A DNA stretch of 64,000 nucleotides, taken from NCBI GenBank assembly GCA_025617745.1, contig CM046858.1:45957697-46021696 (forward strand), written 5' to 3'. The position numbers were made by a program, and so were the translations under genes. Each line of letters begins with the position of its first letter. The first letter of the stretch is position 1. This DNA comes from Heliocidaris erythrogramma (taxonomy: Eukaryota > Echinodermata > Echinoidea > Camarodonta > Echinometridae). Below are positions 4,104-63,080 of this stretch, in pieces. The notes under the pieces were generated by a model, which was given only the letters and a program-made list of their open reading frames with translations, was not told where the DNA came from and searched no databases.

Positions 4104-5182
4104 CCTCGTGTCCTGACTAATTACATCAGATGAATAGTATGACACAAATGTGTTGGGCTAGCTCAATTTGCCGCCTGAAGGATCTCTTCCATTGAAGTGC
4201 CCTGAAAGAGAGCCCAAGAAGCTGAAATTCCCCTTGTATCATGAGCTCTATCTAACAGCATCCGTTGAAAGAGCTTCTGTTCCACCTGACCTAATCCCTT
4301 GCATTATCCACCGAGAAATGGTATCTGGGCTCACTGGCCCATGGGGCTCTACAGAACTGACAAACAATTGGTGGGAAGTGCGAATGCCCTTAGTCCTATC
4401 GATATACCACTTGAGAGCTCGTACTGGGCACCATAACCTATCCTCAGATACTATTGAGATGTTACTAATAGATGGTAAGACAATCTCGCAAGGCTTAGAG
4501 GATTATTTCTGATTTTCTGCTAGAAACCCCGGGTGTTGGAATCATCTCCCAACTGATATGACCCGACTTAACAGAAAGGACATGAATCATAGTATGTCTT
4601 TGGCCTGATGCTACTGCTAGATTGAGAGATTGAGAGATTGAGTAGGGTACATTTATGCATGGGTTCAAAGGGCGGCTTGGCTGGAGCTTGTAGAACCCTG
4701 GGGAGATCCCATCTAGGAATAAGTTTCCGCTTTGGAGGATTCTGTAAGAAAAAGGATCTCGTTAATCTGGAGAGGAAAATTGAATTACAAATAGTTTCCT
4801 CATTAGAGAAACCTGAATGGATAGCTGCTATAGCTGACCTGTAACCCCTTATTGAGGAGATAGATAAGCCCTCATCAAAAAGGATCCGTGAGAAATCAGT
4901 AATCTTACCTAAAGAGGCAGAGGCCGGAATGATCTGCAGACTGTTGCACCATCTGAAGAATCGCTGGAGTCTTGAATCATAAGTACTCCTGGTGGAGGAA
5001 CGGAGAAATCTACAGGCCATATCTGCTGCTCTCTCCGAAAGGCCCGGGTCAAAGTGTAAAAGTCTCTCTGGGTTGGGGTAACACGTGTTCGTCCCAGGCT
5101 GTTTCAGAAGGTCCATTAACGGAAGTAGTGGTCTTGGAATCCACACAAGGAGATTTGTCAGAGCTGGGAACCGTGGCCTCCT
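4104..5182 (-). pseudogene. Tyrosine recombinase remnant of DIRS element 1
   Basis: The N-terminal helical (SAM-like) part is open at 5146-4568, with a typical segment around S-T-R-S-T-Y-D-S-R-L. The C-terminal catalytic part continues in other frames. An H-D-T-R catalytic box is encoded at about 4249-4231, and the segment expected to hold the tyrosine nucleophile lies near 4150-4110. Between them are frameshifts and stops, including TGA where the family has a tryptophan. Enzymes of this type join DIRS circles into the genome; this copy cannot make a full protein. I identify it by motif order and by its position downstream of RNase H. The conserved first arginine of the catalytic set is not in a clean frame. 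Confidence 0.8.
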
Positions 5183-5835
5183 CGGCCGTAATATGGCAAA
5201 AGGGTGTATCTGGGTAAAATGTGGGTTTTATAGATTTTTCCATTTGGGGGGTCTTTGAGCTCGAAATTTTCATTTAGCCAACTCTCAGATGTGGTAGAAT
5301 TTTCGTTTTGAGATAATAGGAGCTATCTTGAGTCGTTTTCACATTTTGGTTGTACATTTGATGGCAAAAGGGTGTATCTATAGATACAGCCCTCAGAATA
5401 TTGAGTAATGCTGATGCTTTAATGGCAGAAAGGTGTATCTTAAGATACAGCCCTTCGCCAAATTAACCAACAGATATATTTCGTACACTTAATATGGCAA
5501 AAGGGTGTATCTATAGATAGGATTTGTATGGTGTATCTGCAGATACACCCTTTTGCCATAAAGAGACTAAGGCGCCATTTGTCAGGTTTTGTTGGCGGAA
5601 GGGTGTATCTAGAAAAAAAATGACTCTAGTCCTGGTGATAATTAATTTCAAAAAATAAAACATATACAAAAATAATTTAAGGTATAAAGCAAAAATTAAG
5701 ACAAACTCCATCATCGAACATCCATTCTTGTGACTTCCACATCAAATCCAAATACCCAAACTTTAAAGCCATTTTTCTCGATTTTGTTTATTCCGCTGCG
5801 GAGCTCAGATACACCCTTTTGCCATATTACGGCCG
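5183..5835. mobile_element. 653-bp inverted-repeat element nested in DIRS element 1
   Basis: The terminal inverted repeats are about 29 bp and start CGGCCGTAATATGGC. The flanking duplication is TCCT (5179-5182 and 5836-5839). Removing the element and one TCCT restores a continuous reading frame across the RNase H to recombinase junction of the host DIRS, which is independent proof of the boundaries. Inside are further degenerate copies of the word GGCAAAAGGGTGTATCT near 5362, 5423, 5492, 5548 (inverted) and 5594. No transposase frame is present, so it is non-autonomous. The 4-bp duplication narrows the superfamily but I do not assign it. Confidence 0.88.
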
Positions 5836-5839
5836 TCCT

Positions 5840-6480
5840 GGGCCACCATGGCGCAATGAGGAGAATGGTTGCCCTCTCCTCCCTCACTTTCTGCAGTACA
5901 TGAGATATGATGGGAAATGGTGGGAAGGCGTAACCGAGTATCCGAGTAGCCGAAATCAATAGAGTGTCCGTTGCAAAGGCTGGAGGATCGCGGTGCTTTG
6001 TGCAATAGATCGGGAGTTGTTTGTTCAAAGTTGATGCAAACAAGTCTATTTGCGGCTGCCTGAACCAACTGAAGATCCTCTCCGTGATGGCACGATTTGT
6101 TGATGAGTTGAGTTGCCATTCCGACGGAAGGTAGCTTCCCCGAGAGAGAAAGTCTACGATGTGATTGTCTTTCCCGGGAATGTGACGAGCTTTCAGAACT
6201 ATACAATTGTTTTGGCACCATGACAGAATCTCTATTGTCAGATAACCTGCACTGAGAAATCAGATCTACCAAACTTGCTAGCAGGCCTAGGAAAGTCAGC
6301 CAGGTTCCGGCTGGCGAGTAAGAGGCAGAGCAAAGCCTTGTACCTACTGATATTACCTTTTCTACCCTGTGGGGAGATGGACAAGCAATTAAGTCTGGGA
6401 TGGTTGTTACAGCCCCTAGAAATTCTGGCGAGGTCGTCGGTGTGAGCCTTGATTTTTTCTTGTTGATTATGAAGCCCAGA
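5840..6480 (-). pseudogene. RNase H remnant and downstream linker of DIRS element 1
   Basis: The minus strand shows the end of the RNase H domain (a segment with H-I-P-G-K-D-N and D-F-L-S-R-G near 6190-6130), then a proline/tryptophan-rich linker (A-P-W-W-P-R near 5855-5838) where the nested element begins. Upstream, the sequence jumps near 6240 from the RT-RNase H connector directly to this C-terminal part. The central strands that normally carry the catalytic acidic residues are therefore absent. At least two frame changes occur. Confidence 0.75.
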
Positions 6481-6499
6481 TCCAATGCCAACTGTCTTA

Positions 6500-7065
6500 C
6501 TGTGTTCACGTGGGAAGCAAGGACGGCCTTGGATGGACCAAGGAGCAACCAGTCGTTGAGGTAACAAAAATATAGTAATGCCTCGCCTCCTTAGTTCCGC
6601 CGCAAAAACTCCTATTAGCCAGGAGAAGATTCTTGGAGCGGGCTTTAGGCCAAAGAGGAGAGCTCTGAATTGACAGCATGTGTTTCCTATTTTGAAGTCC
6701 AAGAGATGCTGAACCTCGTGAGTAATGGGAACGTGATAATAGGCATCTCTGAGGTCTATGGCAACTGCCCATTTGTGGGGCCTTATCAAGGGCAGAATAG
6801 TCAATAATGATTCCATCCTGAAAGTTTGATCTGGGAGGAGTTTGTTTGCTTTCTTTAGGTTTAGTACCATGTGAAAATCGCCCAAGCGTTTCTCTACGAG
6901 GAAGATTAGTGAGAGGACAAGGGAATCGTGGTCCAGAACTCGCACTATGGCCCCTTTTTGGAGTAGGGATTGAATTTCTGATAGGACAGCCTGTAACCAA
7001 ATAGGATCCCTGGGTATGGGGGTCTGCTGATGGAACTGGAAATATTGAAAGATCCTTGGCAACAA
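6500..7065 (-). pseudogene. Reverse transcriptase of DIRS element 1
   Basis: An open frame of 275 codons (7065-6238) contains classical RT blocks: S-E-I-Q-S-L-L-Q-K-G-A-I near its start, F-L-V-E-K-R, a D-L-R-D-A-Y-Y-H-V-P-I block and L-L-F-G-L-K-P-A-P-R. The catalytic box, encoded at 6563-6552 in a neighbouring frame, reads Y-L-N-D where the family has Y-L-D-D. The reading frame therefore shifts before it and the first catalytic aspartate is replaced. It would copy the element's RNA if intact; this copy is inactive on sequence evidence. Confidence 0.85.
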
Positions 7066-7285
7066 TGGGGCGTATCCCCGATTCTATTATCTTGAGTACA
7101 AATTGAGTTATCTTTTGCCAGTTTTGTGAACAAAGAGATAATCTTCCCCCTACTGGAGCCTGTCGTGGGGCAGAATTTGATTGTCAAAAGTGCTGGCTAT
7201 GGGCAAGGGCCTTGAAATCAATGCGCTGGAACTGGGACTGGCGGCCGCGCCATCTTGAAAAATGGTCCTTACCTTCACATGGTAG

Positions 7286-8339
7286 TTAGCAGAGAAGTTT
7301 AGCGGCCTCCTTCACAATCTTGAGGGCGTCGAGCACCTTGGATCTCCTCAAGCTTGTGCAAAGGAGAGCTGATCGTGCAGTTTGTTCATATTGTAGGTCA
7401 GCAATTTTAGAAAGTGATTCCAACACTAGTTTCTTGTCGCGGGGGGAAAGACCAAGTCTCTCAGCCTCGGTAAGGGTAGTTAGTAGGCATCCCTGATACA
7501 TTGCTAGTCAGCAGTACGGAAGCTCCGGGCGCGAAGAGCGTTGTGGCTGCTTCCCGCTCTGGATTTCTTCGGCACCGCATCCTTGACACAATAAGCTACG
7601 TCTGGGACCGAAGGAGTTGCTAAAAACTTTTTAAAATCCTGAGTAGCAAAACGATTATCCTTCAATACGTCCTTACCAGCGGGTTTAAGCTGCGAATGCT
7701 GTCTGTCCAAACTCCATCGTCCCGTAATCGTTCTTGTGAGTGTTCCCCGTGACCATATACGGTGGACGTACCTTGTGCCGATTGGAGGGAATGCACAATG
7801 GAGCTCCCCCATTCCTTGGTGTGACATCGGGGGCAGAATAGCTTGCAAGGCCTGAATTATCCAATCCCCTGCCTCTGCGGGGTCTAGGAGCGAAGCGGGG
7901 GCATGAGCTTGGGGCTCCCCCCTACGACTTTTCTTTGAAGGAACAGCGGGGTCTCTGAGAGATCGACATTTGAATCAGACTGTCTTTTGTTGCAAGTCTT
8001 ACTCATTCTAGAGGAGCAAAAACTCCCCACATCCCCTTCACTACCGATGTCCCTGGGACGGTTATCTTCCTTGGATTTATTTTTATTATCTCTGGTTTTT
8101 CTCCCTTTGGGTTTGGTATTGGTTTTGGGTGTCATTGTAGACTGATTGTCTTGATTTTTCGGCTGAGCATTTGCTGAGTCATTTATTGCCTTCGCTTTCG
8201 CATTCACCGAAGCTTTCTCACCTTTATTATCCCTGGACTTGGGGTTGGATAATGTGGGGGGTTGATCATTAGAGGTCGGCTTATTAATTACCGAACCATT
8301 TTTGTCCGTTTTCTTGGCGGAAGTATTATTTTCCAACAT
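7286..8339 (-). pseudogene. Gag-like region of DIRS element 1
   Basis: The first open segment (8339-7884, 151 codons) is rich in Lys, Asn, Ser and Asp and has low complexity, as in the N-terminal part of DIRS ORF1. Two further segments (7848-7504 and 7501-7286) lie in a row in other frames. The last resembles the helical end of DIRS Gag proteins (T-E-A-E-R-L-G-L-S-P-R). The breaks between them are frameshifts or stops. The assignment rests on position upstream of RT and on composition, so it is weaker than for RT. Confidence 0.6.
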
Positions 8340-8384
8340 AGTGGCTTTCTGTGGTTGTTCACAACTTGAGCGCGGTATCGATTG

Positions 8385-8545
8385 AGGAAGTATAGGCGGG
8401 ATGTAGGGGCATTATATGCTCTGCGGGCAGACGGGTTTCCAGTGTGTGCCAAGGGCAGTCTTTAAATTACACTCTTTCGTCGTTTTTACCGGTGGCTATT
8501 CGAGTTGTGGGTAACGAATAGCAATTTGATGAGATGATATAGTAA
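8385..8545. repeat. DIRS element 1 right inverted terminal repeat
   Basis: Inverted match to 3690-3860. It includes GTTGTGGGTAACGAATAGC near 8503-8521 and GGCGGGATGTAGGGGCAT near 8396. Compared with the internal complementary region it lacks about 19 bases near 8540. Confidence 0.78.
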
Positions 8546-16249: not shown

Positions 16250-17181
16250 AGTAGAACTTTAATGATTTTAAATATTGGCTTAATACTTATTATTGCATAG
16301 ATGGCATGAATTAAACAAGGTTATCCAAATTCAACGCTTGGAAACATTTGAAGTAATGATTATTATCAATTATAAAACAGTAAAATACAGCCCCCGATAT
16401 AGGAGCTGAAGAGCTCCTTGAACGCTGCTGAGATATGTGACGACACACCATGGACCAGTCCTGTCTAAGCAGACGATGTCCCATAACATCTTACACATTT
16501 TTCAGAGCCTATTTTGTCATCTCCTCTTCACTTATTTCTCTTCCTTCACTAGCGTCAGTCTTAATGTTAGTCTGTTGCCTCACTCTTAACTTCGTGTATG
16601 GTATTATTTTGATGAAAAATGCAGCGTTAAAAAAATAAAGGAATCAGTCACTTGTAAACAAAATAAGACACCATTGTATTTTCAGCTGCTTGCACCGGGG
16701 CATGTTCAGCGTTTCAAGAGGGAACGAATACCATCCTGCTATTATTCGGAGGGCTTTTCAATTTGAAAGTGGGGTTTATTTCATTGATCATTGACCCTTC
16801 TCCTGTGTATTTACAATCAAACGGTTTTAGCTATCAGAATCAGTTTCACTTTCCCTTTATAATGGTGTGAAATAAGGTCATGTTTAAATACACCAAACTC
16901 TTTATAATTTGATAAATAATTGCATTGCAATTACGTTCATTCATTATAGGACGTCGTCTGCTTAAGCAGGATCGATCCCGAGTGTGACGACATCAAAACA
17001 TTGCTATATTTCTGGCGAATCCTCGGATATTCCAGATGCTGAGAAGAGCTTTTATTTGTGTTGTTTTTATAATCATCAGATACGCAGTTGACATAAAACT
17101 TATACGATTGCCATCTGTAAGCTTCCCAGTTTCTAGTGATACATTAATTGCCATATTTGTGATTTTCTTTGAATACCTACT
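16250..17181. mobile_element. 932-bp TTAA-flanked element, copy A
   Basis: TTAA lies on both sides (16246-16249 and 17182-17185), with short inverted ends beginning AGTAG and ending CTACT. A longer internal inverted pair is present: GTCTAAGCAGACGATGTCCC near 16463 and GGACGTCGTCTGCTTAAGC near 16950. No transposase frame is present. TTAA duplication is typical of piggyBac and Kolobok types, so it is probably a non-autonomous derivative of one of these. A copy of identical length lies in the same orientation at 61405-62336. Confidence 0.85.
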
Positions 17182-17893: not shown

Positions 17894-18160
17894 TACTAAG
17901 TAGAAGAATTTAATCCAATATTCTGATCAAAAAATCTAACCAAACCTCAGAGGAATAAGAATTCTAGGAGCTTAGTAAACATTCTCTGTATCAATCATGA
18001 CATATACAGGGTGGGTCATAAAATAAGGTCAGTTATAAAAAGATATTAGTTTTAAACCCTTAATCTTAGCAAATGCATAGCCAGTTTTAAGATGTTACAT
18101 AAGAAGTAAGAACAAAACTTATTAGTACGTGTATGCATATATACATGTACATGTATATAT

Positions 18161-20645
18161 TTTTAATTTGTAAACAAATCTTTCGGCATATTACTCCCAG
18201 TGTCAAAGATCGCATGCTCGATCTGTAATGAAAAACACAAGTCAGAAAAAATTGGAACCAGCGGGATTCGAACCTGTCATCTACTGCTTGCCGGGCAGCG
18301 ACTTAACCACCAGGCTATTCTGGTTCACGGCCAAGTCACGACGAACTAGAATCAAATACCCAAGATCCTCTTCTTTCTGACTCATTAATATTCAAACGGT
18401 CCGCCGTGGAACAATGGTTAGTAAACGAAGAAGCTTGACTGGGGAGGAATTTTTAATTTGTAAACAAATCTTTCGGCATATTACTCCCAGTGTCAAAGAT
18501 CGCATGCTCGATCTGTAATGAAAAACACAAGTCAGAAAAAATTGGAACCAGCGGGATTCGAACCTGTCATCTACTGCTTGCCGGGCAGCGACTTAACCAC
18601 CAGGCTATTCTGGTTCACGGCCAAGTCACGACGAACTAGAATCAAATACCCAAGATCCTCTTCTTTCTGACTCATTAATATTCAAACGGTCCGCCGTGGA
18701 ACAATGGTTAGTAAACGAAGAAGCTTGACTGGGGAGGAATTTTTAATTTGTAAACAAATCTTTCGGCATATTACTCCCAGTGTCAAAGATCGCATGCTCG
18801 ATCTGTAATGAAAAACACAAGTCAGAAAAAATTGGAACCAGCGGGATTCGAACCTGTCATCTACTGCTTGCCGGGCAGCGACTTAACCACCAGGCTATTC
18901 TGGTTCACGGCCAAGTCACGACGAACTAGAATCAAATACCCAAGATCCTCTTCTTTCTGACTCATTAATATTCAAACGGTCCGCCGTGGAACAATGGTTA
19001 GTAAACGAAGAAGCTTGACTGGGGAGGAATTTTTAATTTGTAAACAAATCTTTCGGCATATTACTCCCAGTGTCAAAGATCGCATGCTCGATCTGTAATG
19101 AAAAACACAAGTCAGAAAAAATTGGAACCAGCGGGATTCGAACCTGTCATCTACTGCTTGCCGGGCAGCGACTTAACCACCAGGCTATTCTGGTTCACGG
19201 CCAAGTCACGACGAACTAGAATCAAATACCCAAGATCCTCTTCTTTCTGACTCATTAATATTCAAACGGTCCGCCGTGGAACAATGGTTAGTAAACGAAG
19301 AAGCTTGACTGGGGAGGAATTTTTAATTTGTAAACAAATCTTTCGGCATATTACTCCCAGTGTCAAAGATCGCATGCTCGATCTGTAATGAAAAACACAA
19401 GTCAGAAAAAATTGGAACCAGCGGGATTCGAACCTGTCATCTACTGCTTGCCGGGCAGCGACTTAACCACCAGGCTATTCTGGTTCACGGCCAAGTCACG
19501 ACGAACTAGAATCAAATTAATGAGTCAGAAAGAAGAGGATCTTGGGTATTTGATTCTAGTTCGTCGTGACTTGGCCGTGAACCAGAATAGCCTGGTGGTT
19601 AAGTCGCTGCCCGGCAAGCAGTAGATGACAGGTTCGAATCCCGCTGGTTCCAATTTTTTCTGACTTGTGTTTTTCATTACAGATCGAGCATGCGATCTTT
19701 GACACTGGGAGTAATATGCCGAAAGATTTGTTTACAAATTAAAAATTCCTCCCCAGTCAAGCTTCTTCGTTTACTAACCATTGTTCCACGGCGGACCGTT
19801 TGAATATTAATGAGTCAGAAAGAAGAGGATCTTGGGTATTTGATTCTAGTTCGTCGTGACTTGGCCGTGAACCAGAATAGCCTGGTGGTTAAGTCGCTGC
19901 CCGGCAAGCAGTAGATGACAGGTTCGAATCCCGCTGGTTCCAATTTTTTCTGACTTGTGTTTTTCATTACAGATCGAGCATGCGATCTTTGACACTGGGA
20001 GTAATATGCCGAAAGATTTGTTTACAAATTAAAAATTCCTCCCCAGTCAAGCTTCTTCGTTTACTAACCATTGTTCCACGGCGGACCGTTTGAATATTAA
20101 TGAGTCAGAAAGAAGAGGATCTTGGGTATTTGATTCTAGTTCGTCGTGACTTGGCCGTGAACCAGAATAGCCTGGTGGTTAAGTCGCTGCCCGGCAAGCA
20201 GTAGATGACAGGTTCGAATCCCGCTGGTTCCAATTTTTTCTGACTTGTGTTTTTCATTACAGATCGAGCATGCGATCTTTGACACTGGGAGTAATATGCC
20301 GAAAGATTTGTTTACAAATTAAAAATTCCTCCCCAGTCAAGCTTCTTCGTTTACTAACCATTGTTCCACGGCGGACCGTTTGAATATTAATGAGTCAGAA
20401 AGAAGAGGATCTTGGGTATTTGATTCTAGTTCGTCGTGACTTGGCCGTGAACCAGAATAGCCTGGTGGTTAAGTCGCTGCCCGGCAAGCAGTAGATGACA
20501 GGTTCGAATCCCGCTGGTTCCAATTTTTTCTGACTTGTGTTTTTCATTACAGATCGAGCATGCGATCTTTGACACTGGGAGTAATATGCCGAAAGATTTG
20601 TTTACAAATTAAAAATTCCTCCCCAGTCAAGCTTCTTCGTTTACA
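18161..20645. repeat. Palindromic array of 290-bp units (five forward, four inverted)
   Basis: Nearly identical 290-bp units start at 18161, 18451, 18741, 19031 and 19321. The fifth is cut at 19517. After a spacer (19518-19547) the same units continue in inverted orientation (about 19517, 19807, 20097 and 20387) until 20645. The result is two arms of about 1.1 kb (18421-19517 and 19548-20644) that are reverse complements. Each unit has a tRNA-like cassette. Both outer flanks contain the microhomology ACATGTATATA. Divergence between copies is very low, so the array is young, actively homogenised, or an assembly product. Confidence 0.95.
19578..19652 (+). pseudogene. tRNA-like Pol III cassette (one of nine copies)
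   Basis: Representative copy. The internal A box TAGCCTGGTGG differs from consensus at one base. The B box GGTTCGAATCC is a perfect match. The outer stem is 7 bp (GAACCAG with CTGGTTC). A short anticodon-like stem encloses a 7-base loop CCGGCAA, with C in place of the universal U33. The D and T stems are imperfect. Three bases after the cassette is a T6 run able to stop Pol III. It occurs in all nine units: five on the minus strand in the left arm and four on the plus strand in the right arm. It is best read as a tRNA-derived SINE head or tRNA pseudogene; transcription is possible but not shown. Confidence 0.7.
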
Positions 20646-20782
20646 TGTATATAGTTACATATATATAGATGCGAAGATACCCAACTTTAACATTTCGACA
20701 GCGTCTTGGTAAATTGTATAGTGTGAGGACTGATGAGACAGGAGACAAATGACATAGCTGAACTTCAACTTTATTGGATCAA

Positions 20783-20810
20783 GCTTTCGGCCTTCACGGC
20801 CTTCTTTAGG
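20783..20810 (-). ncRNA. Hammerhead-ribozyme-like motif near a retroelement-like 3' end
   Basis: On the minus strand the motif reads CCTAAAGA, then a GGCC-GTGAA-GGCC hairpin, then GAAAGC. This is the layout of a type-I hammerhead core (CUGANGA, stem II, GAAA) with one core change (CUAAAGA). It is followed by a segment with AATAAAG at 20772-20766. Penelope-like elements and small retrozymes carry such motifs. I could not establish stems I and III, and no open frame accompanies it. Confidence 0.35.
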
Positions 20811-20840
20811 TTCTGAAGATGATAATACAAACATATAGCA

Positions 20841-21455
20841 TATATTTCAATATACACACATGTCATTGAGTTTTATATATACATATATACATACATATAT
20901 TTCAGGTTTAAAGTTTTCTTTTTTTTATAGACTTATTTCCAACAAAAAAAGAACATGACATTAAGATTGAAAATTGAATACATAATATAAACAAATCATT
21001 TTCAAACAGGTCCCACTTATAACAAATATTTCATGATTATTGTGAGCAACAAACATAGGAATAAGCCAGTTCGGGGTTAGCGCATGGTACAAATGACCCC
21101 AAATATCCACAGATATTTTAGACATGGAGGGTCCCTTTATGTGCACTTCAGAAAAATAACTCTGGGAGTGATAGAGGTGCCTCATGAATAGCTTTTGTTT
21201 CCCCCTTTAAAAAGAATACTTCCACCTGGATATCATGGAATGCACCATTAGTGCATAATTGAATAATGATTACATGACATTCATGAGCACATATCGAATA
21301 TTAGTGTCAGTGGGTTTTAGAATTTGGTACAGATGACCTTTATCTGCTCATGCTCAGATTGCATCTCCGAAGTGGCTTATTGTAAGAGAAATATAGAAGG
21401 ATCTTTAAAAGAGACTCACATGTATATACATGTAGAAGAATCCTATTCCTTTTAA
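20841..21455. other. Non-coding stretch
   Basis: AT-rich with TATA/CATA microsatellite words near 20880-20905. No exon or domain is seen. Confidence 0.5.
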
Positions 21456-25845: not shown

Positions 25846-27041
25846 GCATACTGGTATAGCAGATAGCGATACATATTACAGAAACTATAGACTGCTCTAA
25901 GGGGCGTGGTTAAAAGTATTACCCCAAGATGATTCCCGCATACTGGTATAGCAGATAGCGATACATATTACAGAAACTATAGACTGCTCTAAGGGGCGTG
26001 GTTAAAAGTATTACCCCAAGGTGATTCCCGCATACTGGTATAGCAGATAGCGATACATATTACAGAAACTATAGACTGCTCTAAGGGGCGTGGTTAAAAG
26101 TATTACCCCAAGATGATTCCCGCATACTGGTATAGCAGATAGCGATACATATTACAGAAACTATAGACTGCTCTGATGGGCGTGGTTAAAAGTATTACCC
26201 CAAGGTGATTCCCGCATACTGGTATAGCAGATAGCGATACATATTACAGAAACTATAGACTGCTCTGAGGGGCGTGGTTAAAAGTATTACCCCAAGATGA
26301 TTCCCGCATACTGGTATAGCAGATAGCGATACATATTACAGAAACTATAGACTGCTCTAAGGGGCGTGGTTAAAAGTATTACCCCAAGATGATTCCCGCA
26401 TACTGGTATAGCAGATAGCGATACATATTACAGAAACTATAGACTGCTCTGAGGGGCGTGGTTAAAAGTATTACCCCAAGATGATTCCCGCATACTGGTA
26501 TAGCAGATAGCGATACATATTACAGAAACTATAGACTGCTCTAAGGGGCGTGGTTAAAAGTATTACCCCAAGATGATTCCCGCATACTGGTATAGCAGAT
26601 AGCGATACATATTACAGAAACTATAGACTGCTCTGAGGGGCGTGGTTAAAAGTATTACCCCAAGGTGATTCCCGCATACTGGTATAGCAGATAGCGATAC
26701 ATATTACAGAAACTATAGACTGCTGTAAGGGGCGTGGTTAAAAGTATTACCCCAAGGTGATTCCCGCATACTGGTATAGCAGATAGCGATACATATTACA
26801 GAAACTATAGACTGCTCTAAGGGGCGTGGTTAAAAGTATTACCCCAAGGTGATTCCCGCATACTGGTATAGCAGATAGCGATACATATTACAGAAACTAT
26901 AGACTGCTCTAAGGGGCGTGGTTAAAAGTATTACCCCAAGATGATTCCCGCATACTGGTATAGCAGATAGCGATACATATTACAGAAACTATAGACTGCT
27001 CTGAGGGGCGTGATTAAAAGTATTACCCCAAGGTGATTCCC
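25846..27041. repeat. 92-bp tandem array, 13 copies
   Basis: The period is 92 bp from 25846. Copies differ mainly at one spot before GGGCGTGG (CTAA, CTGA, GTAA) and at AGATGATT versus AGGTGATT. Every unit carries GGGCGTGGTT (GATT in the last) and ends with TATTACCCCAAG. The first and last units grade into unique sequence. There are no variable spacers, so it is a satellite-type array and not a CRISPR. Confidence 0.95.
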
Positions 27042-37900: not shown

Positions 37901-38467
37901 GGAAACCTAGGTCACTGGATGTATATTGTATCAATAGCAGGCTAACCTAGGTCACTGTATTTATATTGTATCAATAGCATGCTAACCTGGGTCACTGGAT
38001 GTATACTGTATCAATAGCATGCTAACCTGGGTTACTGGATGTATATTGTATCTATAGCATGCTAACCTGGGTCACTGGATGTATATTGCATCAATAGCAT
38101 GCTAACCTGGGTCACTGGATGTATATTGTATCTATAGCATGCTAACCTGGGTCACTGGATGTATATTGTATCTATAGCATGCTAACCTAGGTCACTGGAT
38201 GTATACTGTATCAATAGCATGCTAACCTGGGTCACTACATGTATACTGTATCAATAGCATGCTAACCTGGGTCACTACATGTATACTGTATCAATAGCAT
38301 GCTAACCTGGGTTACTGGATGTATATTGCATCAATAGCAGGCTAACCTAGGTCACTGCATGTATACTGTATCAATAGCATGCTAACCTGGGTTACTGGAT
38401 GTATATTGTATCAATAGCATGCTAACCTGGGCCACTGGATGTATATTGTACCAATAGCATGCTAACC
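37901..38467. repeat. 40-bp tandem array, about 14 copies
   Basis: The period is 40 bp, with unit words GCTAACCTGGGTCACTGGAT and GTATATTGTATCAATAGCAT. Sequence drift among copies is moderate (GGTTACT, CACTACAT, TCTATAG). There are no spacers, so it is a minisatellite. Confidence 0.95.
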
Positions 38468-40149
38468 TTTATACTCATAATTTTAACTGTTTTACCCCAA
38501 AGTCTCATAGGACAAAATTATGTGTATCTTATTATCTCAAAAGTTTGTGTATCAGTATATTTTTAAATTTTAAAGATCATTAAAAATCGCATTGTTATTA
38601 ACTCTCTCTTAAAAATCCAGATCAACTCATTTAAATAAGCTTGTATGTAACATGCTTTTCAAAAGAACAAATCTCATTGCAATGATATTAGCAACCTTAC
38701 ATGCACCCCCACAAAATAACCTTGAACAAGATATTTATAACACCCGGTCAGTTTTTAGCTCACTAGAGTTCAGTAACATTATCTTACAAGATATCACACA
38801 GAGATGGAAAGAAGTAGGTCATGGATCAGATGTCCTAGCAAGCCTTAAATAGAAACAATTCAGAATTGTATATCACACTACTGACCATGACCATACCAAT
38901 CATAGTTTCATTATAAGAAACCATACCTTGTAATGGATATACAAATGTGATGACAACTACTATATCTCCTTCATAGATGACAGACACACAAAAAAATAAG
39001 TTCTACTGTTTCTTTTGGTAATAAACTTCAGCAAGAAATATTTTCTGACTAAATTATGACTTTCAATGCTTTTGCTGGTGTCAAAGCTATAAATAGTGAT
39101 TCTTTAAAAATATGATTATCAAAATTATCACAAAACTGATAATTCAATTTTCCACCAATTAAAGGAAAAAAATAGGCCTATATGACTGACAATACACTCT
39201 AAATTTAAGAGTCAATTATTCAAAAGCATAGCAAGATCTTGTTCTGAGTCACAATTAGTTACATTAAATCTTGAAAGAAGATATCCAATATGCCCTTAAT
39301 ACCATTGGAAGACACACAAAAGAACACAAAGTCTTCAACAGCCTTGAGGCTCTTAAGAACATGATATAGGGTAATGCCTTGACAGACAATAATGAGTTTT
39401 ACAGGATGGCACATTTTGAAATCAACTTGCATGTTCATCCACAAGGGTTGGCATCAAGCTTATTGACTAGCATCATTCATCATCCATACATGTGTTGCTA
39501 CGGGATACGCATCATTGGTATACAGAATCATTGATATAAGATAGGAAAGATATTGAGCAACAACGGGGGAGGGGAGGAAGGGGAGGGTGGAGAAGAGAGA
39601 TAAAGAGGGTAAGAGGGAAAAGAGAAAATCAAAGATAAGAATGGACTGGCTGAGATGTGATAATTAGAAAAAAATACTAAGTTGACATACAAAATCCTGT
39701 TTACCAAGTTCATGAACTTATCAGAATTAATAGTTAATTGAAATTAAAAGTGAAATTGCAATTTAGAATAGATATGGATCAGATTACCCAGAATTTTCTA
39801 TACTGCATTTACTGAGATCATGGTACTATTGCACAATTTAAGTTGATTCAAAGTTGTATGCCAGATAATACAGAAAAATTTAATTTATAAAATAAAATAC
39901 ATTCACACTGCAATTTGAATTTAACTTCATCAGCTGGGCGTTATTCAAGAGTATAATGTAATAGATAAATTAATGAGGTAGGACTATCTAAGAAGTACAA
40001 AGCCGGTATTTAGTCCATTGAGCACAATTATATATTACGAATTAAGCATTAGGTTAAAATTCATACAGTAAAAAAATATGATATTATTTCAGTTTTTCAA
40101 TTAAAGCAATACTAAATTAATAACGACAGACCAAGTTTGGAAAGGTTCA
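38468..40149. other. Non-coding stretch
   Basis: AT-rich. A G/A-rich tract lies at 39562-39630. No domain is seen in the short frames. Confidence 0.5.
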
Positions 40150-42361: not shown

Positions 42362-43029
42362 TTGGCATATCTCTCATAATTACATGAATAATCCAGTAGT
42401 CATGAATCCTGTATCAGAGGTGTTGTGGATCAGTGGATAAGTCCCCGGACTGTGAACCACGAGGTTATAATGAAAATTTTCATAGCAAGAGGCTTTACAC
42501 TAAAGAACAAATGATAAGACAGGACTCAGAGGACAGACTGACAAGATAATACAAGACAGAACATGACACAACTAGGACAGGACAACACAAGACAAAGAAA
42601 GAAAGGGGAAAAAGGGGGAAATCAAGCAAAACAAGACAGAACAAAGACAAAACTGCACTAGAAAAAAGAAGAAAAAAAGAAAGAGAGACTTTAACTCATA
42701 GATGAATTGTACTTTTGAAGTAAAAGTTTTTTAAACCCTCTACTGAAACTGAAATGTGTGGCTTTATTTCTGATTGGATCCGGAGAGTTCCACAGTTTTG
42801 ACCCAGTAAATATAAACGTTTTATTTGAAATTAATGTTCTCGTTCTTGGTAGATGAAAAAGCCCAGCAGACCTAGCAGGGTAATGATGAATATTGAGATT
42901 CTTTGAAAATATTGAATAAAATACATTGGGCAGTTCCTTTCTATTTAGATTATCATAACTGTTATAGTTCAAAAATTCTGAACTGAAAGTGAAAGGCATC
43001 ACAGAAAATATAAAACAAAACAATTTCAC
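42121..43029 (-). mobile_element. 3' fragment of a LINE, minus strand
   Basis: The open frame 43029-42691 has the LINE C-terminal pattern (I-H-H-Y-P-A-R, L-P-R-T-R-T, G-S-K-L-W-N-S, final F-K-K-L-L). Below it lies a 3' UTR that ends GAAATAAACCTTGCATCAAT followed by tandem ATCA words at 42121-42137. A tRNA-like SINE head (42405-42470) and a TA microsatellite (42342-42360) interrupt the UTR. It is a 5'-truncated copy of a different family from the one at 28.9 kb. Confidence 0.75.
42405..42470 (+). mobile_element. Possible tRNA-derived SINE head
   Basis: The A-box-like TGGATCAGTGGATAAGTC is followed by an anticodon-arm-like segment with CCCCGGACTGTGAACCACG and a truncated B-box-like GAGGTTATAAT. 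The order and spacing fit the 5' half of a tRNA, but the B box is damaged. Confidence 0.35.
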
Positions 43030-43059: not shown

Positions 43060-46000
43060 CATAGTAGTCCCTCAGATAGGACTATAGGGCATATCATCTA
43101 CTAGATACTTTACAGAATAGGGTATAGATATCGTCCTAAATTCCCTTGGATAAGACTTTAGGGCATATCATCTACAGAATACTTTACAGAATAAGGCATA
43201 GATATCGTCCTAAAGTCCCTCGGATAGGACTTTAGGGCATATCATCTACAGAATACTTTACAGAATAAGGTATAGATATCGTCCTAAAGTCCCTGAGATA
43301 GGACTTTAGGGCATATCATCTACAGAATACTTTACAGAATAAGGTATAGATATCGTACTAAAGTCCCTCGGATAGGACTTTATGGCATATCATCTACAGA
43401 ATACTTTACAGAATAAGGTATAGATATCGTACTAGAGTCCCTGAGATAGGACTTTAGGGCATATCATCTACAGAATACTTTACAGAATAAGGTATAGATA
43501 TCGTACTAAAGTCCCTGAGATAGGACTTTATGGCATATCATCTACAGAATACTTTACAGAATAAGGCATAGATATCGTACTAAAGTCCCTGAGATAGGAC
43601 TTTAGGGCATATCATCTACAGAATACTTTACAGAATAAGGAATAGATATTGTCCTAAAGTCCCACGGATAGGACTTTAGGGCATATCATCTACAGAATAC
43701 TTTACAGAATAAGGTATAGATATCGTCCTAAAGTCCCTGAAATAGGACTTTAGGGCATATCATCTACAGAATACTTTACAGAATAAGGTATAGATATTGT
43801 CCTAAAGTCCCTCAGATAGGACTTTAGGGCATATCATCTACAGAATACTTTATAGAATAAGGTATAGATATCCTCCTAAAGTCCCTCGGATAGGACTTTA
43901 GGGCATATCATCTACAGAATACTTTACAGAATAAGGTATAGATATCCTCCTACAGTCCCTCGGATAGGACTTTATGGCATATCATCTACAGAATACTTTA
44001 CAGAAATGAAGGCATAGATATCGTCCTAAAGTCCCTGAGATAGGACTTTAGGGCATATCATATACAGAATACTTTATAGAATAAGGTATAGATATCCTCC
44101 TACAGTCCCTCGGATAGGACTTTATGGCATATCATCTACAGAATACTTTACAGAATAAGGTATAGATATCGTACTAAAGTCCCTGAGATAGGACTTTAGG
44201 GCATATCATCTACAGAATACTTTACAGAATAAGGTATAGATATCGTCCTAAATTCCCTTGGATAAGACTTTAGGGCATATCATCTACAGAATACTTTACA
44301 GAATAAGGTATAGATATCGTACTAAAGTCCCTCGGATAGGACTTTAGGGCATATCATCTCCAAAATACTTTACAGAATAAGGCATAGATATCGTACTAAA
44401 GTCCCTGAGATAGGACTTTAGGGCATATCATCTACAGAATACTTTACAGAATAAGGAATAGATATTGTCCTAAAGTCCCACGGATAGGACTTTAGGGCAT
44501 ATCATCTACAGAATACTTTACAGAATAGGGTATAGATATCGTCCTAAAGTCCCTCGGAGAGGACTTTAGGGCATATCATCTACAGAATACTTTACAGAAT
44601 AAGGTATAGATATCGTCCTAAAGTCCCTGAGATAGGACTTTAGGGCATATCATCTACAGAATACTTTACAGAATAAGGTATAGATATCGTACTAAAGTCC
44701 CTCGGATAGGACTTTAGGCATATCATCTACAGAATACTTTACAGAATAAGGTATAGATATCGTCCTAAAGTCCCTCGGATAGGACTTTAGGGCATATCAT
44801 CTACAGAATACTTCACAGAATAAGGTATAGATATCGTACTAAAGTCCCTGAGATAGGACTTTAGGGCATATCATCTACAGAATACTTTACAGAATAAGGT
44901 ATAGATATCGTCCTAAATTCCCTTGGATAAGACTTTAGGGCATATCATCTACAGAATACTTTACAGAATAAGGTATAGATATTGTCCTAAAGTCCCTCGG
45001 ATAGGACTTTAGGGCATATCATCTACAGAATACTTTATAGAATAAGGTATAGATATCCTCCTACAGTCCCTCGGATAGGACTTTATGGCATATCATCTAC
45101 AGAATACTTTACAGAAATGAAGGCATAGATATCGTCCTAAAGTCCCTGAGATAGGACTTTAGGGCATATCATATACAGAATACTTTATAGAATAAGGTAT
45201 AGATATCCTCCTACAGTCCCTCGGATAGGACTTTATGGCATATCATCTACAGAATACTTTACAGAATAAGGTATAGATATCGTCCTAAATTCCCTTGGAT
45301 AAGACTTTAGGGCATATCATCTACAGAATACTTTACAGAAATGAAGGCATAGATATCGTCCTAAAGTCCCTGAGATAGGACTTTAGGGCATATCATATAC
45401 AGAATACTTTATAGAATAAGGTATAGATATCCTCCTACAGTCCCTCGGATAGGACTTTATGGCATATCATCTACAGAATACTTTATAGAATAAGGTATAG
45501 ATATCGTCCTAAATTCCCTTGGATAAGACTTTAGGGCATATCATCTACAGAATACTTCACAGAATAAGGTATAGATATCGTACTAAAGTCCCTGAGATAG
45601 GACTTTAGGGCATATCATCTACAGAATACTTTACAGAATAAGGTATAGATATCGTCCTAAATTCCCTTGGATAAGACTTTAGGGCATATCATCTACAGAA
45701 TACTTTACAGAATAAGGTATAGATATTGTCCTAAAGTCCCTCGGATAGGACTTTAGGGCATATCATCTACAGAATACTTTATAGAATAAGGTATAGATAT
45801 CGTACTAAAGTCCCTGAGATAGGACTTTAGGGCATATCATCTATAGAATACTTTACAGAATAAGGTATAGATATCGTACTAAAGTCCCTGGGATAGGACT
45901 TTAGGGCATATCATCTACAGAATACTTTATAGAATAAGGTATAGATATCGTACTAAAGTCCCTCGGATAGGACTTTAGGGCATATCATCTACAGAATACT

Positions 46001-46215
46001 TTACAGAATAAGGTATAGATATTGTCCTAAAGTCCCTCAGATAGGACTTTAGGGCATATCATCTACAGAATACTTTATAGAATAAGGTATAGATATCCTC
46101 CTACAGTCCCTCGGATAGGACTTTATGGCATATCATCTACAGAATACTTTACAGAAATGAAGGCATAGATATCGTCCTAAAGTCCCTCAGATAGGACTTT
46201 AGGGCATATCATCTA
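43060..46215. repeat. 74-bp tandem array, about 42 copies, with hairpin monomers
   Basis: The period is 74 bp. Each monomer has CCTAAAGTCC and GGACTTTAGG as perfect 10-bp inverted arms around an 8-base loop (variants of CTCGGATA). Variant monomers (CTCCTACAGTCC, AATTCCCTTGGATAAG, and a form with AGAAATGAAGGC) recur in the same order in several blocks (about 43865-44120, 45045-45260, 45335-45470, 46080-46200), indicating higher-order duplication. No variable spacers and no coding. Confidence 0.95.
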
Positions 46216-47414
46216 CCCATTAACAGATATGTACTTTTATATATATATTTTATAAATATAAAGAAAAAAGAACTGTGATTACCGGCCTCTTCTTAGTGTG
46301 ATGAGAAAGAATACTCCGCACACTAAACGCTCGTCTCAACTTTCGAAACATCTTGAGTTTGAGATGGCACAATCCTAATCAAGTTGGCAGAATAACCTTG
46401 ATGATTTCCTATCAGTTTTGCTCATAGTCAGAGAGGAAGGTGTAAGACTTTCCAAACTTCTCAAGTTCTGATACATGCTCACTATCTATTGTCATTCATA
46501 GAGTACAAAGCAATTCATATGCCATCATTGTATCTTGACGTCGCAACACTGGGAACTTTAGAACATCACAATAGAAAATTCTGAGTTCTATATCTGCATT
46601 GCAAGGTATGCAAACAAAGCAACTCATATCTACTACAAAAGAAGGTGATGAAATTCATTTAGTCCAAACAAACAAGCTCCATCATATTCATGCACTGGAG
46701 GCACCAGTGTGTCACTATTTTTAGAAGTATGTTAATATATCCATGTTCAATACCTCCACACTCTACACGATCATGATGCTTAGGGAAATACCACTTCTGT
46801 CATGAAGGTAAACTCATTTTCTGATAAAAAGTCCAGATCAACGATTAACTATAACAAGAACTTGAATACAAGAAACAGACTCCCTAGGAGAAATAGATCC
46901 TCTGTTGGCAGTCAAGTGAGCATATATCTCATATATCCCAATATGACATCCAATTGATTTCAAGTTCCTGGACAAGAGAGCAAATGATGTTCCACTTCTA
47001 AAAAGGAATTTATTAATGCAGCTCAAGTTGAGAAACTTATTTACAGTGCTCCCAATGAGGAGAAACTTGTTTACAACTCTCCCCAATGAAGAGGCAGCGC
47101 TATTGGGAGGAGGCAGCTACTGAAATCAGCTGACATTGAGTATCCCAGGCATCACTTTCATAACATTGCTCTATCACTCAAAGAATACATGAAAGTTTAG
47201 AAGCCAAGTGCACTCTCTCTAACCCACTAAGAAAGAGAGAGAGAGAGACCAGTGTCTAAAGTTTCTTTCCCTTCCCAAAGGCATACCAACAAATCACCAT
47301 AACGACCCCTCTGACTTGGCATGGACTTGGCAGAGACACAGTGCTCCTTCAACCCTGTGGGAGAAAACTTATTTTGAGACCAACCTAAATGAACTCATGC
47401 AGACTGACACAATT
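46216..47414. other. Non-coding stretch
   Basis: No supported exon. A GA microsatellite lies at 47232-47247. Confidence 0.5.
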
Positions 47415-48547: not shown

Positions 48548-49349
48548 CAGTTAACAACAAAATTATTCATACCCCTTGGAAAATTCTAGTTTTTTGCATT
48601 TTTCCTAAAAATGAATGGTTAACTGAATTTAATTGCACATCACTTGAATACATTTAGTTATCATCTGCAAATGAATGCTGTTTCTGGTTTCACTCATTTG
48701 CATAACAATAGAAAAGGTGATTTATCCAAACTGGGTGATGTTCAAAATGATTCATACCCTTGGTGATCTATTGACTTTGTCAATCAGTATGAATCCAGTC
48801 CTTGTGATTAATGCTCGTGACACTTTCTTCACACTGTCACAATGCTTCTGGAGGTCTCTACTGAGATATCAGGCCAATACCTGGTCTCCAATGGCCCAAT
48901 CTCCTTGAGGATGTTGTCCACACATGCCATCACCTGGTCTTCAGGGGATTCGATGGATGTAAAGCAGATTTTGTGTTTGCAGGTGGTGTAGTTTTAGACG
49001 TCATGAGGACAGGACTATGATATTGATATTTTTGTTAATATTCCTTACGTTTTAATGACAATACTGTATCTAAGTTGAAACAAAGCACTCTTCCTGGAGA
49101 GACTTCCCTAGAGGCATTCACTGTTGCACTGTCAAGGGAAGGTATTTCCTGATACTTTTGTTCCATTATTATTAAGAATGTTTAGGGAGGCCATGGTAGT
49201 TGTCTAAAGGTTGGATGGTGCCAATTTTATCAGTTTATTCAGTTACACTGATTGACACATTTTTGATATGGACACCTGCAAGTGGGTACTCTAGTGAAGC
49301 TTAAAATTTGTAAAATCAGCACTGATTTTCTTATTTACTATATAAATCT

Positions 49350-49709: not shown

Positions 49710-50690
49710 TTACAGCAAAGAATACAAAGACACAGCGGCCTTCAAGGTGGCTGACGCAAACATAGCCTCACCTGCGGGAACATCCCTAAGGTAGCAAGAA
49801 ATGAAGGAATTGGGCGAACGCCAATAAGCAGCCTTCAAAATATCATCAAGCGCCACACCTTGAAACAGAGCCCAAGAAGTGCTGACACTACGAGTGTCAT
49901 GAGCACGAGGCTTACTGTCGGAAAAAAGAGCCCCTGTGCCAGCAGCCCTAAAAGCCTCGACAATCCATCTAGAAATGGAATCAAGAGAAGCAGGAGAAAA
50001 AGGCTCTCTAGTGATCAGGAACAACTGATCATCCTTACGATAAGACTTAGTCTTATTAAAATATCAATTGAGAGCCACTTTGTCCTCGCGCACTGACGAA
50101 AACCCAGAAAGCAGACAAAGAAAAATCTCAACAGGGCCAGAGGCAGCTGTCTGATTCTCGGCAATAAAAGAAGCCTTAGGAATCAATCTAACGCCTTTTC
50201 TCTCCCAGCGAACATGACCAGGAGTAAGGCAGAGAGTATGAAGAGTACTGCGCCTCTGCCCAGAGGCAAAAGCTACCAAAAAGAGTCTTAACCGTAAGAT
50301 GATGAAGCGAGCTTCACCTAACGGTTCGAAAAGAGGTTTCGCCAAGGCCTCCAGGACCTTAGGCAGACTCCAAGACGGCACTAACCTAGAACAAGGAGGT
50401 CGCTTCAAAAAGAACGACCGAATCACACCACTTAACAGCGGGGAATTGGAAATCCCCGAACCATCTGAGAAACCCGAATGAATGGCCCCGATCGTTCCGA
50501 ACGGTAGCCTCGGATAGCAGAGATGGATCTCCCTTTGTCAAATAGCGAGATTAGAAAATCCGCAATTGAACCAATAGGAGCCGATAAGGGGTTTGACTTC
50601 GCTCTTTACGCCAAAGGAAAAAGACCGAAAGACGGGAATTATAATTCTCCCTAGTAGAAACTCTACGACTGGACAATAAAAATTCCGCGG
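49710..50690 (-). pseudogene. Tyrosine recombinase of DIRS element 2
   Basis: The N-terminal helical domain lies at about 50690-50580 (S-T-R-E-N-Y-N-S-R-L). The catalytic domain is in one frame from 50426 to 49710. It holds an arginine box (S-G-Q-R-R-S, near 50255), an H-D-T-R box (near 49901) and the tyrosine segment I-S-C-Y-L-R-D (near 49785). A single TGA near 50065 replaces a sense codon inside this otherwise open frame, and a frameshift near 50430-50560 separates the N-terminal part. The catalytic set (R, H-x-x-R, Y) is therefore recognisable but the gene is broken. Confidence 0.82.
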
Positions 50691-50759
50691 CTCTATCACA
50701 GAGACCCGACTGTCTTGCAGATTCCCCGACAAGGGCCAAGCAGTCAAATGAAGGGACTC

Positions 50760-51249
50760 TGGATTGTGGTGAAGAATCCCCGAGAGGGGCTGCAACACCA
50801 GATCCACTCTTAACGGAAGAAGGAAGTAGGTGGTTTAGAATCGACGCAAAAAGATCCACTTCCAGTGGATCCAGGTAACTGCAAATGCGGCGAAAGACCT
50901 CTGGATGGAGCATCCATTCCGATGGAAGACACCTACCCCGAGACAGAAAATCCGCAATGAGGTTTTCCAGACCGGGGATGAAAGAGGCCACGGGTGTGAT
51001 CGCCATGCGACAACACCACCTCCACAGCTGTGCTGCTAGGGCATTCAGGATAGCAGAACGAGTGCTTCCCTGCAGATTGACATACATGTAAGCCGCCACA
51101 GTGACATTGTCCGTGAGGATCAGAACTGAACGACTGAAAAGTCGACTTCTGAAATGAAGCAGGGTTAAAAGAACTGCCATAAACTCCAGGACATTAAATA
51201 TGGGGAAGAGTCCCAAGATGAGACCAATCCCCCGCGACCGCGCTGCCAT
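50760..51249 (-). pseudogene. RNase H domain of DIRS element 2
   Basis: An open frame of 232 codons (51249-50551) contains a glutamate-bearing helix (N-V-L-E-F-M-A-V), the block L-I-L-T-D-N-V-T-V-A-A-Y, then Q-G-S-T-R-S, F-I-P-G-L-E-N-L-I-A-D-F-L-S-R-G and V-D-L-F-A-S. These are the RNase H signatures of DIRS elements, including the catalytic E and D positions. The frame runs on into the recombinase N-terminus. The first catalytic Asp near the start lies in the preceding, frame-shifted segment. Confidence 0.82.
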
Positions 51250-51299
51250 TGCAATGTCCTCCCCACCCCAACCGAGAGGCGTCCGTCGAAACCGAGATC

Positions 51300-61140: not shown

Positions 61141-61189
61141 GGGTATATATATACACATACATATATATATATATATATGTGCCACTGGA

Positions 61190-63078: not shown

Positions 63079-63080
63079 GT

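What the first reader, a model, noticed from the sequence alone, without database searches (positions are those of the whole stretch)
18161..20645. Palindromic array of nine tRNA-like Pol III cassettes
Nine near-identical 290-bp units, five in one orientation and four in the other, form arms of about 1.1 kb around a 30-bp spacer. Each unit has a perfect B box, a near-consensus A box, a 7-bp outer stem and a T6 terminator, so all nine could be transcribed away from the centre. Tandem plus inverted amplification of a SINE-like unit with almost no divergence is unusual. It could be a young amplification, a gene-conversion-maintained palindrome or an assembly artefact.
Basis: partly seen in the sequence, partly recalled or inferred. 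Interest (0 to 1): 0.78.

Follow-up and report, generated by a model that had tools for sequence, protein, structure and literature searches.

The report
Palindromic retrotransposon array with tRNA-like units
The palindrome is one insertion of a small mobile element that copies itself through RNA; its fixed ends carry the fingerprint of Penelope-like retrotransposons, and it suggests how tiny ribozyme-free RNAs may be pasted into animal genomes as tandem, head-to-head arrays.

Summary
In detail: window 18160-20644 holds identical 290-bp units, five tRNA-like cassettes facing left and four facing right. It is not an isolated palindrome or satellite. The same genome (1.06 Gb) has many dispersed copies; I analysed 36 in full sequence and 10 further palindromes from coordinates, five of those with fetched edges. 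They share one anatomy: tandem units (up to 20), usually an inverted arm, a variable central junction, target-site duplications of 10-17 bp (22 of 36 loci; 1 of 1260 control pairs), and two preferred outer sites, A and B, about 30-45 nt apart. Of 34 two-armed copies, 32 have exactly one A end; none is A/A or B/B. This matches the two-start 'tail' of Penelope-like elements (PLEs); PLEs with GIY-YIG endonuclease and hammerheads are common in this genome and show similar double ends. Rare changes between copies are biased to A>G in the tRNA-sense strand (36 vs 6 T>C), clustered, and in one copy shared by both arms, as expected from ADAR-type editing of an RNA template. Best reading: a non-autonomous, tRNA-headed, hammerhead-less, retrozyme-like element, dual-primed by PLE machinery on a circular or multimeric RNA. 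The circle, the partner PLE and transcription are inferred, not shown.

The parts
18148..18159 (+). left target-site duplication TACATGTATATA
   Evidence: the only two copies of this 12-mer in 17900-20900 are at the two array edges
18160..18189 (+). outer end B (second start site; TTTTTAATTTGTAAACAAATC)
   Evidence: an end in u23-46 is present at one side of 32 of 34 two-armed copies
18160..19517 (+). left arm: u30-290, three full 290-bp units, u1-227; the RNA sense is the minus strand
18254..18326 (-). tRNA-like Pol III cassette 1 (B box at 18264-18274); T6 at 18246-18251
18544..18616 (-). tRNA-like cassette 2
18834..18906 (-). tRNA-like cassette 3
19124..19196 (-). tRNA-like cassette 4
19414..19486 (-). 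tRNA-like cassette 5
19516..19517 (.). central inversion junction (u227 of the left arm joins u259 of the right arm, 2-bp overlap)
19516..20644 (-). right arm: u259-1 and three full units in the opposite orientation; the RNA sense is the plus strand
19579..19651 (+). tRNA-like cassette 6 (T6 at 19654)
19869..19941 (+). tRNA-like cassette 7
20159..20231 (+). tRNA-like cassette 8
20449..20521 (+). tRNA-like cassette 9
20632..20644 (+). outer end A (first start site; RNA sense CTTCTTCGTTTAC)
20642..20653 (+). right target-site duplication TACATGTATATA (first three bases overlap end A)

Best explanation
The array is a single insertion of a non-autonomous retroelement with a 290-nt unit. SHOWN: dispersed copies; target-site duplications of 10-17 bp at 22 of 36; preferred outer ends A and B; variable central junction; the four one-armed copies with a duplication all keep A and are cut at the other end; strand-biased A>G changes in the tRNA-sense strand. 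INFERRED: an RNA of the tRNA-like sense, several units long or circular, is bound by a Penelope-like reverse transcriptase/endonuclease. The enzyme cuts AT-rich DNA on both strands with a stagger of about 12 nt. One cut 3' end starts cDNA at A, the other starts a second cDNA, mostly 30-45 nt upstream at B, on the same RNA. Both cDNAs run the same way over the template, in some copies passing it several times, and are joined where they meet. The result is a head-to-head palindrome of tandem units whose length depends on how far each cDNA ran. ADAR-type editing of the RNA before copying left A>G clusters.
For: Target-site duplications of 10-17 bp at 22 of 36 loci against 1 of 1260 mismatched flank pairs. 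Ends, first set: 24 two-armed loci, of which 22 have one A and one B and two, L034 and L027, have B and an end at u13-14; P of all 22 mixed under free choice of A and B is 2.2e-7 (L034 and L027 not in that sum). A second listing gave 32 loci not in the first set, 10 of them recognisable as palindromes: 5 read A/B, 5 looked A/A, and on fetching their edges all five had one A end and one end at u41, u41, u46, u58 or u96, with duplications of 8-13 bp read by eye. Bases between the duplication and u1 match the unit upstream of u1 in 8 loci, 12 of 12 bases (my tally; a ninth, L041, is ambiguous and not counted), so copying starts inside the RNA. PLEs of this genome show double ends: 28 of 41 matches of one family stop at query 133-138 and one stops at 99, in an inverted pair with a 133 end; a second family has two clusters of ends about 40 nt apart and two inverted pairs that mix them. 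Editing: A>G 36 vs T>C 6 (P 4e-8), by site 24 vs 3 (P 2e-6), C>T 3 vs G>A 9 (not significant), against no such bias among units within arrays (A>G 4 of 28); clustering, 35 events, 3 loci with five or more, 0 of 5000 simulations; ADAR-like neighbours, 5' G 2 of 24 vs 19 of 50 other A (P 0.012), 3' G 11 of 24 vs 8 of 50 (P 0.010); four A>G changes shared by both arms of L019. Units within a locus differ by 0.56 of 290 (289 pairs, 190 of them from L010), between loci by 14.3. Published: a PLE starts copying at two adjacent internal sites that explain the genomic 'tail' (PMC11167929, parts 1-2 of 4 read).
Against: No partner PLE was identified: the start region does not align to two PLE start regions better than shuffles (424 and 979 of 1000 as good), and its hairpin is no more stable than shuffles (76 of 200 as good). 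No hammerhead in the unit, so no known route to a circle. In vitro the published PLE shows no difference in start site between the two DNA strands (PMC11167929), whereas here one site is used at each side; and one PLE group in this genome (C2:18924950-18925475) has A-type ends on both sides. Edited adenosines are not enriched in predicted pairs (14 of 24 vs 44 of 74 of all A). 14 of 36 loci have no exact duplication of 10 bp or more, including 4 of 22 A/B loci and L034 and L027. Units could also have multiplied in place after insertion; array L012 has 0-4 differences between units. Shared A>G sites in L028 and L037 may be inherited from an edited source copy.
Confidence: 0.75

Rival explanations
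1. Tandem array grown in place (satellite-like expansion or replication slippage) and turned into a palindrome by a DNA break, fold-back or gene conversion.
For: Perfect identity within the window array; one array has 20 full units (L010), longer than most arms; some later growth in place cannot be excluded.
Against: Same preferred A and B ends and target-site duplications at unrelated places; small copies of one to two units have the same ends and inverted tails; the A>G strand bias points to RNA.
Confidence: 0.1
2. A tRNA-SINE moved by a LINE, with inversions made by ordinary twin priming.
For: Pol III-type box and T6; target-site duplications of 10-17 bp and truncation at one end are also LINE-like; inversions resemble twin priming.
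Against: No poly-A or simple-repeat tail seen at the A ends; the inverted arm starts in a narrow place (an end in u23-46 in 32 of 34 two-armed copies) instead of anywhere; several units per insertion; T6 should end the Pol III transcript before the start sites. LINE features are recalled; no LINE of this genome was compared.
Confidence: 0.1
3. Foldback or TIR DNA transposon with internal tandem repeats.
For: Long inverted arms and duplicated target sites.
Against: Duplication length varies (8-17 bp), the two termini differ (A vs B), B varies by about 20 nt, the central junction differs between copies, and one-armed copies exist.
Confidence: 0.02
4. Assembly artefact.
For: Near-identical palindromes are hard to assemble; one locus (L028) borders on N.
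Against: The rule on ends and the target-site duplications recur over dozens of loci and in small copies under 700 bp.
Confidence: 0.03

Closest known systems
Metazoan non-LTR retrozymes (Cervera and de la Pena 2020, PMC7229834)
   Same: Non-coding tandem units of 170-400 bp, low G+C, highly self-paired RNA, dispersed, duplications longer than 4 bp, PLEs in the same genome; proposed circular RNA template.
   Different: No hammerhead core in the unit; a tRNA-like Pol III cassette instead; inverted arms with a double end. The word 'inverted' does not occur in that paper's main text, and a review says retrozyme repeats show no conserved motif that would reveal the mobilising element (PMC7761336, passages).
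Penelope-like elements, Penelope/Poseidon type
   Same: Head-to-head inverted copies, partial tandems, 30-40 bp 'tail' at one of the inverted ends, short target duplications, AT-rich targets (PMC11167929 parts 1-2; PMC3846280 passages).
   Different: No open reading frame, no hammerhead; the insertion consists of repeats of a 290-bp unit.
tRNA-derived SINEs
   Same: Short, non-coding, tRNA-like box A/B and T-run.
   Different: SINEs are LINE-moved monomers as a rule (recalled); this one is tandem and palindromic with PLE-type ends.
Helenus (tRNA-bearing TRIM LTR elements, PMC10886601 passages)
   Same: tRNA-like sequence in a small non-autonomous retroelement.
   Different: Helenus has two LTRs, PBS and PPT and 4-5 bp duplications.

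Membership tests
Penelope-like element (autonomous) | reverse transcriptase with GIY-YIG endonuclease ORF | tested here: not met
   The 10 ORFs of at least 150 aa listed in the window all lie outside 18160-20644.
Penelope-like element (integration signature) | two start sites 30-40 nt apart, one used at each end of inverted copies ('tail') | tested here: met
   22 of 24 two-armed loci are A/B, the other two u13-14/B; 8 of 10 in a second set are A with u23-46, the other two A with u58 and u96.
Penelope-like element (integration signature) | short target-site duplications at AT-rich sites | tested here: met
   22 of 36 loci with 10-17 bp; AT-richness of flanks seen by eye, not tested against background.
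Penelope-like element | minimal hammerhead in the repeat | tested here: not met
   No CTGANGA with up to one mismatch in RNA sense; as a control the exact core pattern finds one downstream of the endonuclease in 24 of 30 GIY-YIG loci. Rfam is no test: it misses the PLE hammerheads of L078 and L052 too.
Metazoan retrozyme | type I hammerhead ribozyme | tested here: not met
Metazoan retrozyme | tandem units of 150-450 bp, G+C below 50% | tested here: met
   290 bp, 124 of 290 G+C
Metazoan retrozyme | highly self-paired RNA | tested here: met
   circular fold -81.6 vs -67.5 +- 4.9 kcal/mol, 0 of 200 shuffles
Metazoan retrozyme | expressed as circular RNA of unit length | not testable with these tools
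   no RNA data
tRNA-derived SINE | Pol III box A/B with tRNA ancestry | tested here: inconclusive
   perfect B box, 7-bp stem, T6; no tRNA called, Rfam 19.4 bits below cut-off
tRNA-derived SINE | LINE-like 3' end, monomeric insertion | tested here: not met
   no poly-A at the A ends, double ends, tandem and inverted; no LINE of this genome was compared
Helenus/TRIM | LTR-type 4-5 bp duplication | tested here: not met
   10-17 bp where found

The most novel reading that the evidence does not exclude
A class of ribozyme-free, tRNA-headed RNA circles that are copied simultaneously by the two halves of a PLE reverse-transcriptase dimer, one loaded at A and one at B of the same circle, so that both cDNAs roll around it in the same direction and each insertion is a tandem palindrome. 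This would make the family a direct demonstration that PLEs move retrozyme-like RNAs, with the tRNA-like piece taking over the part that the hammerhead plays elsewhere.
Probability: 0.4. Interest if true: 0.82.

Novelty: new variant of a known kind. Interest (0 to 1): 0.7.

Why it matters
Which enzyme moves animal retrozymes is an open question: PLEs are the suspect because both carry hammerheads, occur as tandem copies and live together (PMC7229834, PMC7761336, passages). This family carries PLE-type ends in an element with no hammerhead, so the link does not rest on a shared ribozyme, and it gives dozens of insertions on which PLE integration (sites A and B, stagger near 12 bp, centre joined) can be read. 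The A>G footprint offers a way to tell RNA-templated tandem arrays from satellites using sequence alone. It also explains a kind of perfect palindrome that might otherwise be called a misassembly.

Tried and rejected
Rfam hits to plant and animal microRNA families at the centre of the array are what a perfect inverted repeat gives and were dropped. A hammerhead in the unit: none by pattern (one CTGGGGA in the antisense strand has no GAAA in reach); the look-alike around CTGGGAG...CGAAA is not kept in older copies (seen as TAAA in several rows). ARAGORN with introns allowed gave a tRNA-Trp with a 246-nt intron in tandem units; I regard it as a false positive because the array period is 290, not 246. 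Sequence relation of the start region to PLE families L078 and L052: not above shuffles. A tRNA-Arg gene just upstream of the PLE ORF in L074 looked at first like a PLE with a tRNA promoter; it is a separate dispersed element next to (TA)n. About a dozen places with one identical structure (L043 type) appear to be one old insertion carried by a larger repeat; I checked this on three of them, L043, L080 and L081, which share flanks. L039 and L013 were left out of the substitution count because of bad alignment or large gaps, with all 36 loci in and rows built differently, A>G is 37 and T>C 10. L039 and L029 were left out, in which variants carried by at most 9 loci were shared by both arms 20 times (many are subfamily markers) and seen in one arm 32 times; the one-arm ones are mixed in type and fit later mutation. 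One search used partly wrong end coordinates that I had typed; one search replaced it. Literature searches; none of the listings showed a PLE-moved tRNA-SINE or a hammerhead-less retrozyme, but the library lacks most subscription papers and Repbase could not be searched.

Full report
What is there. The finding is accurate in outline. Window 18160-20644 is built of a 290-bp unit repeated without a single difference, first in one orientation and then in the other. If the unit is cut at what turns out to be its natural end (U = window 18421-18710, numbered u1-u290), the left arm runs from u29 through three full units to u227 and the right arm, on the other strand, through three full units to u259. 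Nine identical tRNA-like pieces, five minus and four plus, carry a perfect B box, a 7-bp stem and T6.

It is a family of insertions. A search of the window's own genome (1,064,227,859 bases, 26 contigs) with one unit listed places that I grouped into 36 loci, the window included; the list was cut off, 175 candidates were seen at first look and 40 scored, so this is a lower bound. Variant queries saw 829 and 687 candidates, 40 scored each, some of them one old copy carried by another repeat. I fetched the 35 others of the first set. They are arrays of one to twenty units that end in an inverted arm or are cut off. Units within a locus are nearly identical (0.56 differences of 290, 289 pairs, 190 of them from L010), those of different loci are not (mean 14.3, 231 pairs of 22 loci).

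Ends and duplications. Flanks of 22 of 36 loci share an exact duplication of 10-17 bp; of 1260 mismatched left-right pairs one reaches 10. In the window it is TACATGTATATA at 18148-18159 and 20642-20653. Outer ends fall mostly on two places: A (u1, give or take a few bases) and B (u26-u42). By the BLAST map 22 of 36 loci have A and B, 8 A and a truncated end, 4 B and a truncated end, 2 other; A/A and B/B do not occur. One of the four B/truncated, L027, proved on a closer look to have a short second arm that starts at u14, like L034, which has u13 and B; the other twelve one-armed loci show no such arm. Duplications of 10 bp or more are found in 18 of 22 A/B loci, 4 of 8 A/truncated, 0 of 4 B/truncated and 0 of 2 others (combined). 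So the one-armed insertions with a duplication all begin at A, and palindromes use A once and B once. A second listing, made with another query, gave 32 loci not in the first set, ten of them recognisable as palindromes; the list was cut off, so the other 22 are undecided. Five of the ten read as A/B; five looked like A/A because short pieces were not listed. I fetched their edges as a test: each has one A end, and the other end lies at u41, u41, u46, u58 and u96, with duplications of 8-13 bp by eye. Over both sets 32 of 34 two-armed copies have exactly one A end, and 32 of 34 have an end within u23-46; the exceptions to the first are L034 and L027, to the second the u58 and u96 copies.

Direction. 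A fixed outer end and a variable inner end are expected if copying starts outside and stops at the centre. This makes the RNA the complement of U, that is, the tRNA-like sense. In eight loci bases lie between the duplication and u1, and all 12 such bases equal the unit upstream of u1 (my tally; L041 is ambiguous and left out), so the template continues beyond A and the start is internal.

RNA editing footprint. Differences carried by at most 3 of 36 loci, read in the tRNA sense and with L039 and L013 left out, number 69: A>G 36, T>C 6, C>T 3, G>A 9, all others 15. With all loci in and rows built differently A>G is 37 and T>C 10. By unique site A>G is 24 against 3 T>C (P 2e-6). Mutation in DNA would be symmetric, and among units within arrays, where changes came later, A>G is 4 of 28. 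The events cluster (L028 seven, L035 six, L037 six, L019 four; 0 of 5000 simulations give three loci with five or more). In L028 six of seven are in all four full units, the seventh in three; in L019 both arms carry them, apart from one site at the very end of the first arm that lies in the duplication. Neighbours fit the recalled preference of ADAR enzymes: 5' G is avoided and 3' G favoured, each at P about 0.01. Edited positions are not preferentially paired in the predicted fold (14 of 24 against 44 of 74), which does not help the case. I take the bias as evidence that RNA of this sense was the template; that both arms or all units share the changes suggests one molecule copied repeatedly, though descent from an edited source copy would look the same.

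Penelope-like elements in the genome. A GIY-YIG search lists 150 scored places of 1721 candidates, several as close pairs in opposite orientation. Three tested ORFs (L074, L075, L077) carry RVT_1 and GIY-YIG. A hammerhead core lies downstream of the endonuclease in 24 of 30 loci by exact pattern. A query across the end of one PLE family gives 28 of 41 matches that stop at position 133-138 and one that stops at 99, the latter in an inverted pair with a 133 end (40 of 997 candidates scored); the tail is thus about 34 nt. In a second family the printed copies leave the element in one of two clusters about 40 nt apart, mostly into (TA)n (by eye), and two inverted pairs mix the two ends, while one group at C2:18924950-18925475 has A-type ends on both sides. 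Published work ties this tail to two adjacent start sites of a PLE reverse transcriptase from Anolis, which cuts both strands of AT-rich DNA and starts inside the RNA (PMC11167929, parts 1 and 2 of 4 read); there no difference in start site between the strands was seen in vitro, so the one-of-each rule seen here goes beyond it. Inverted copies with a 31-bp tail at one of the inverted repeats and 8-10 bp duplications are described in rotifers (PMC3846280, passages). The window family has the same anatomy. I could not find a PLE with a similar start sequence; two that I tried do not align better than shuffles.

What it most resembles. Animal retrozymes are tandem units of similar size, thought to move through RNA circles and suspected to be moved by PLEs, on the ground of shared hammerheads, tandem copies and co-existence (PMC7229834 parts 1-3 of 6 and passages; PMC7761336 passages). 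The present unit has no hammerhead core; Rfam is silent but also misses the PLE hammerheads of L078 and L052, so only the pattern scan counts. It folds into a strongly self-paired circle. I therefore describe it as retrozyme-like and PLE-moved, not as a retrozyme or a PLE.

The Pol III question. The cassettes have the signals of a Pol III gene, and T6 is unchanged in 34 of the 36 printed rows, L030 (TTTTGT) and the misaligned L039 being the exceptions (counted by eye). Pol III would be expected to stop there, before reaching B and A, so it cannot make the template unless it reads through. Pol II read-through or a circle is needed; neither was tested. How a circle would form without a ribozyme is unknown.

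Verdict. The palindrome is ordinary for its family, and the family is unusual: a short, tRNA-headed, ribozyme-free element whose insertions carry the double-start signature of Penelope-like elements and an RNA-editing footprint. Retrotransposition is well supported, PLE machinery likely, and the single-circle, two-enzyme model attractive but unproven.

Noticed in passing
window 20645-20887: A piece of a Penelope-like element, 91% identical to the 3' flank of the L077 PLE ORF and containing a hammerhead-like stretch, directly abuts the right end of the array.
   Followed up: partly
L074 283-495, L058 2396-2892, L067 1940-2184: A dispersed element with an intact tRNA-Arg(TCT) gene (Rfam 65.5 bits in L074) and ATTTTTT, 48 matches with 40 of 126 candidates scored, beside (TA)n and PLEs in several loci and as a head-to-head pair in L058; possibly a second tRNA-headed family of this kind.
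   Followed up: partly
L043, L080, L081: One old copy of the 290-bp element sits inside another repeat that has since multiplied; flanks are shared, and its 12-bp duplication has one mismatch by eye.
   Followed up: partly
L034 1447, L027 1469: Two copies have their second end at u13-14 instead of A, with B on the other side and no duplication found; a possible minor third start site.
   Followed up: partly
window 43066-46216: Tandem array of 42.5 copies of a 74-bp unit, 92% matches.
   Followed up: no
window 25846-27041: Tandem array of 13 copies of a 92-bp unit, 98% matches.
   Followed up: no
window 37904-38468 and 62761-63079: Further tandem arrays of 40-bp (14 copies) and 52-bp (6 copies) units.
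   Followed up: no
window 4568-8411 and 50064-54365: Reading frames of retroelement type in G+C-richer islands; of three frames scanned one (6238-7083) matches RVT_1. They look DIRS-like from recall, which was not tested.
   Followed up: no
window 16269-16324, 42416-42465, 48668-48911, 55953-56205, 60980-61260, 61424-61479: Other stretches similar to DNA around PLE loci.
   Followed up: no
L015 1532-1889: One copy has a perfectly symmetric centre (u179 joined to u179 with no spacer), as if a cDNA had folded back on itself.
   Followed up: no
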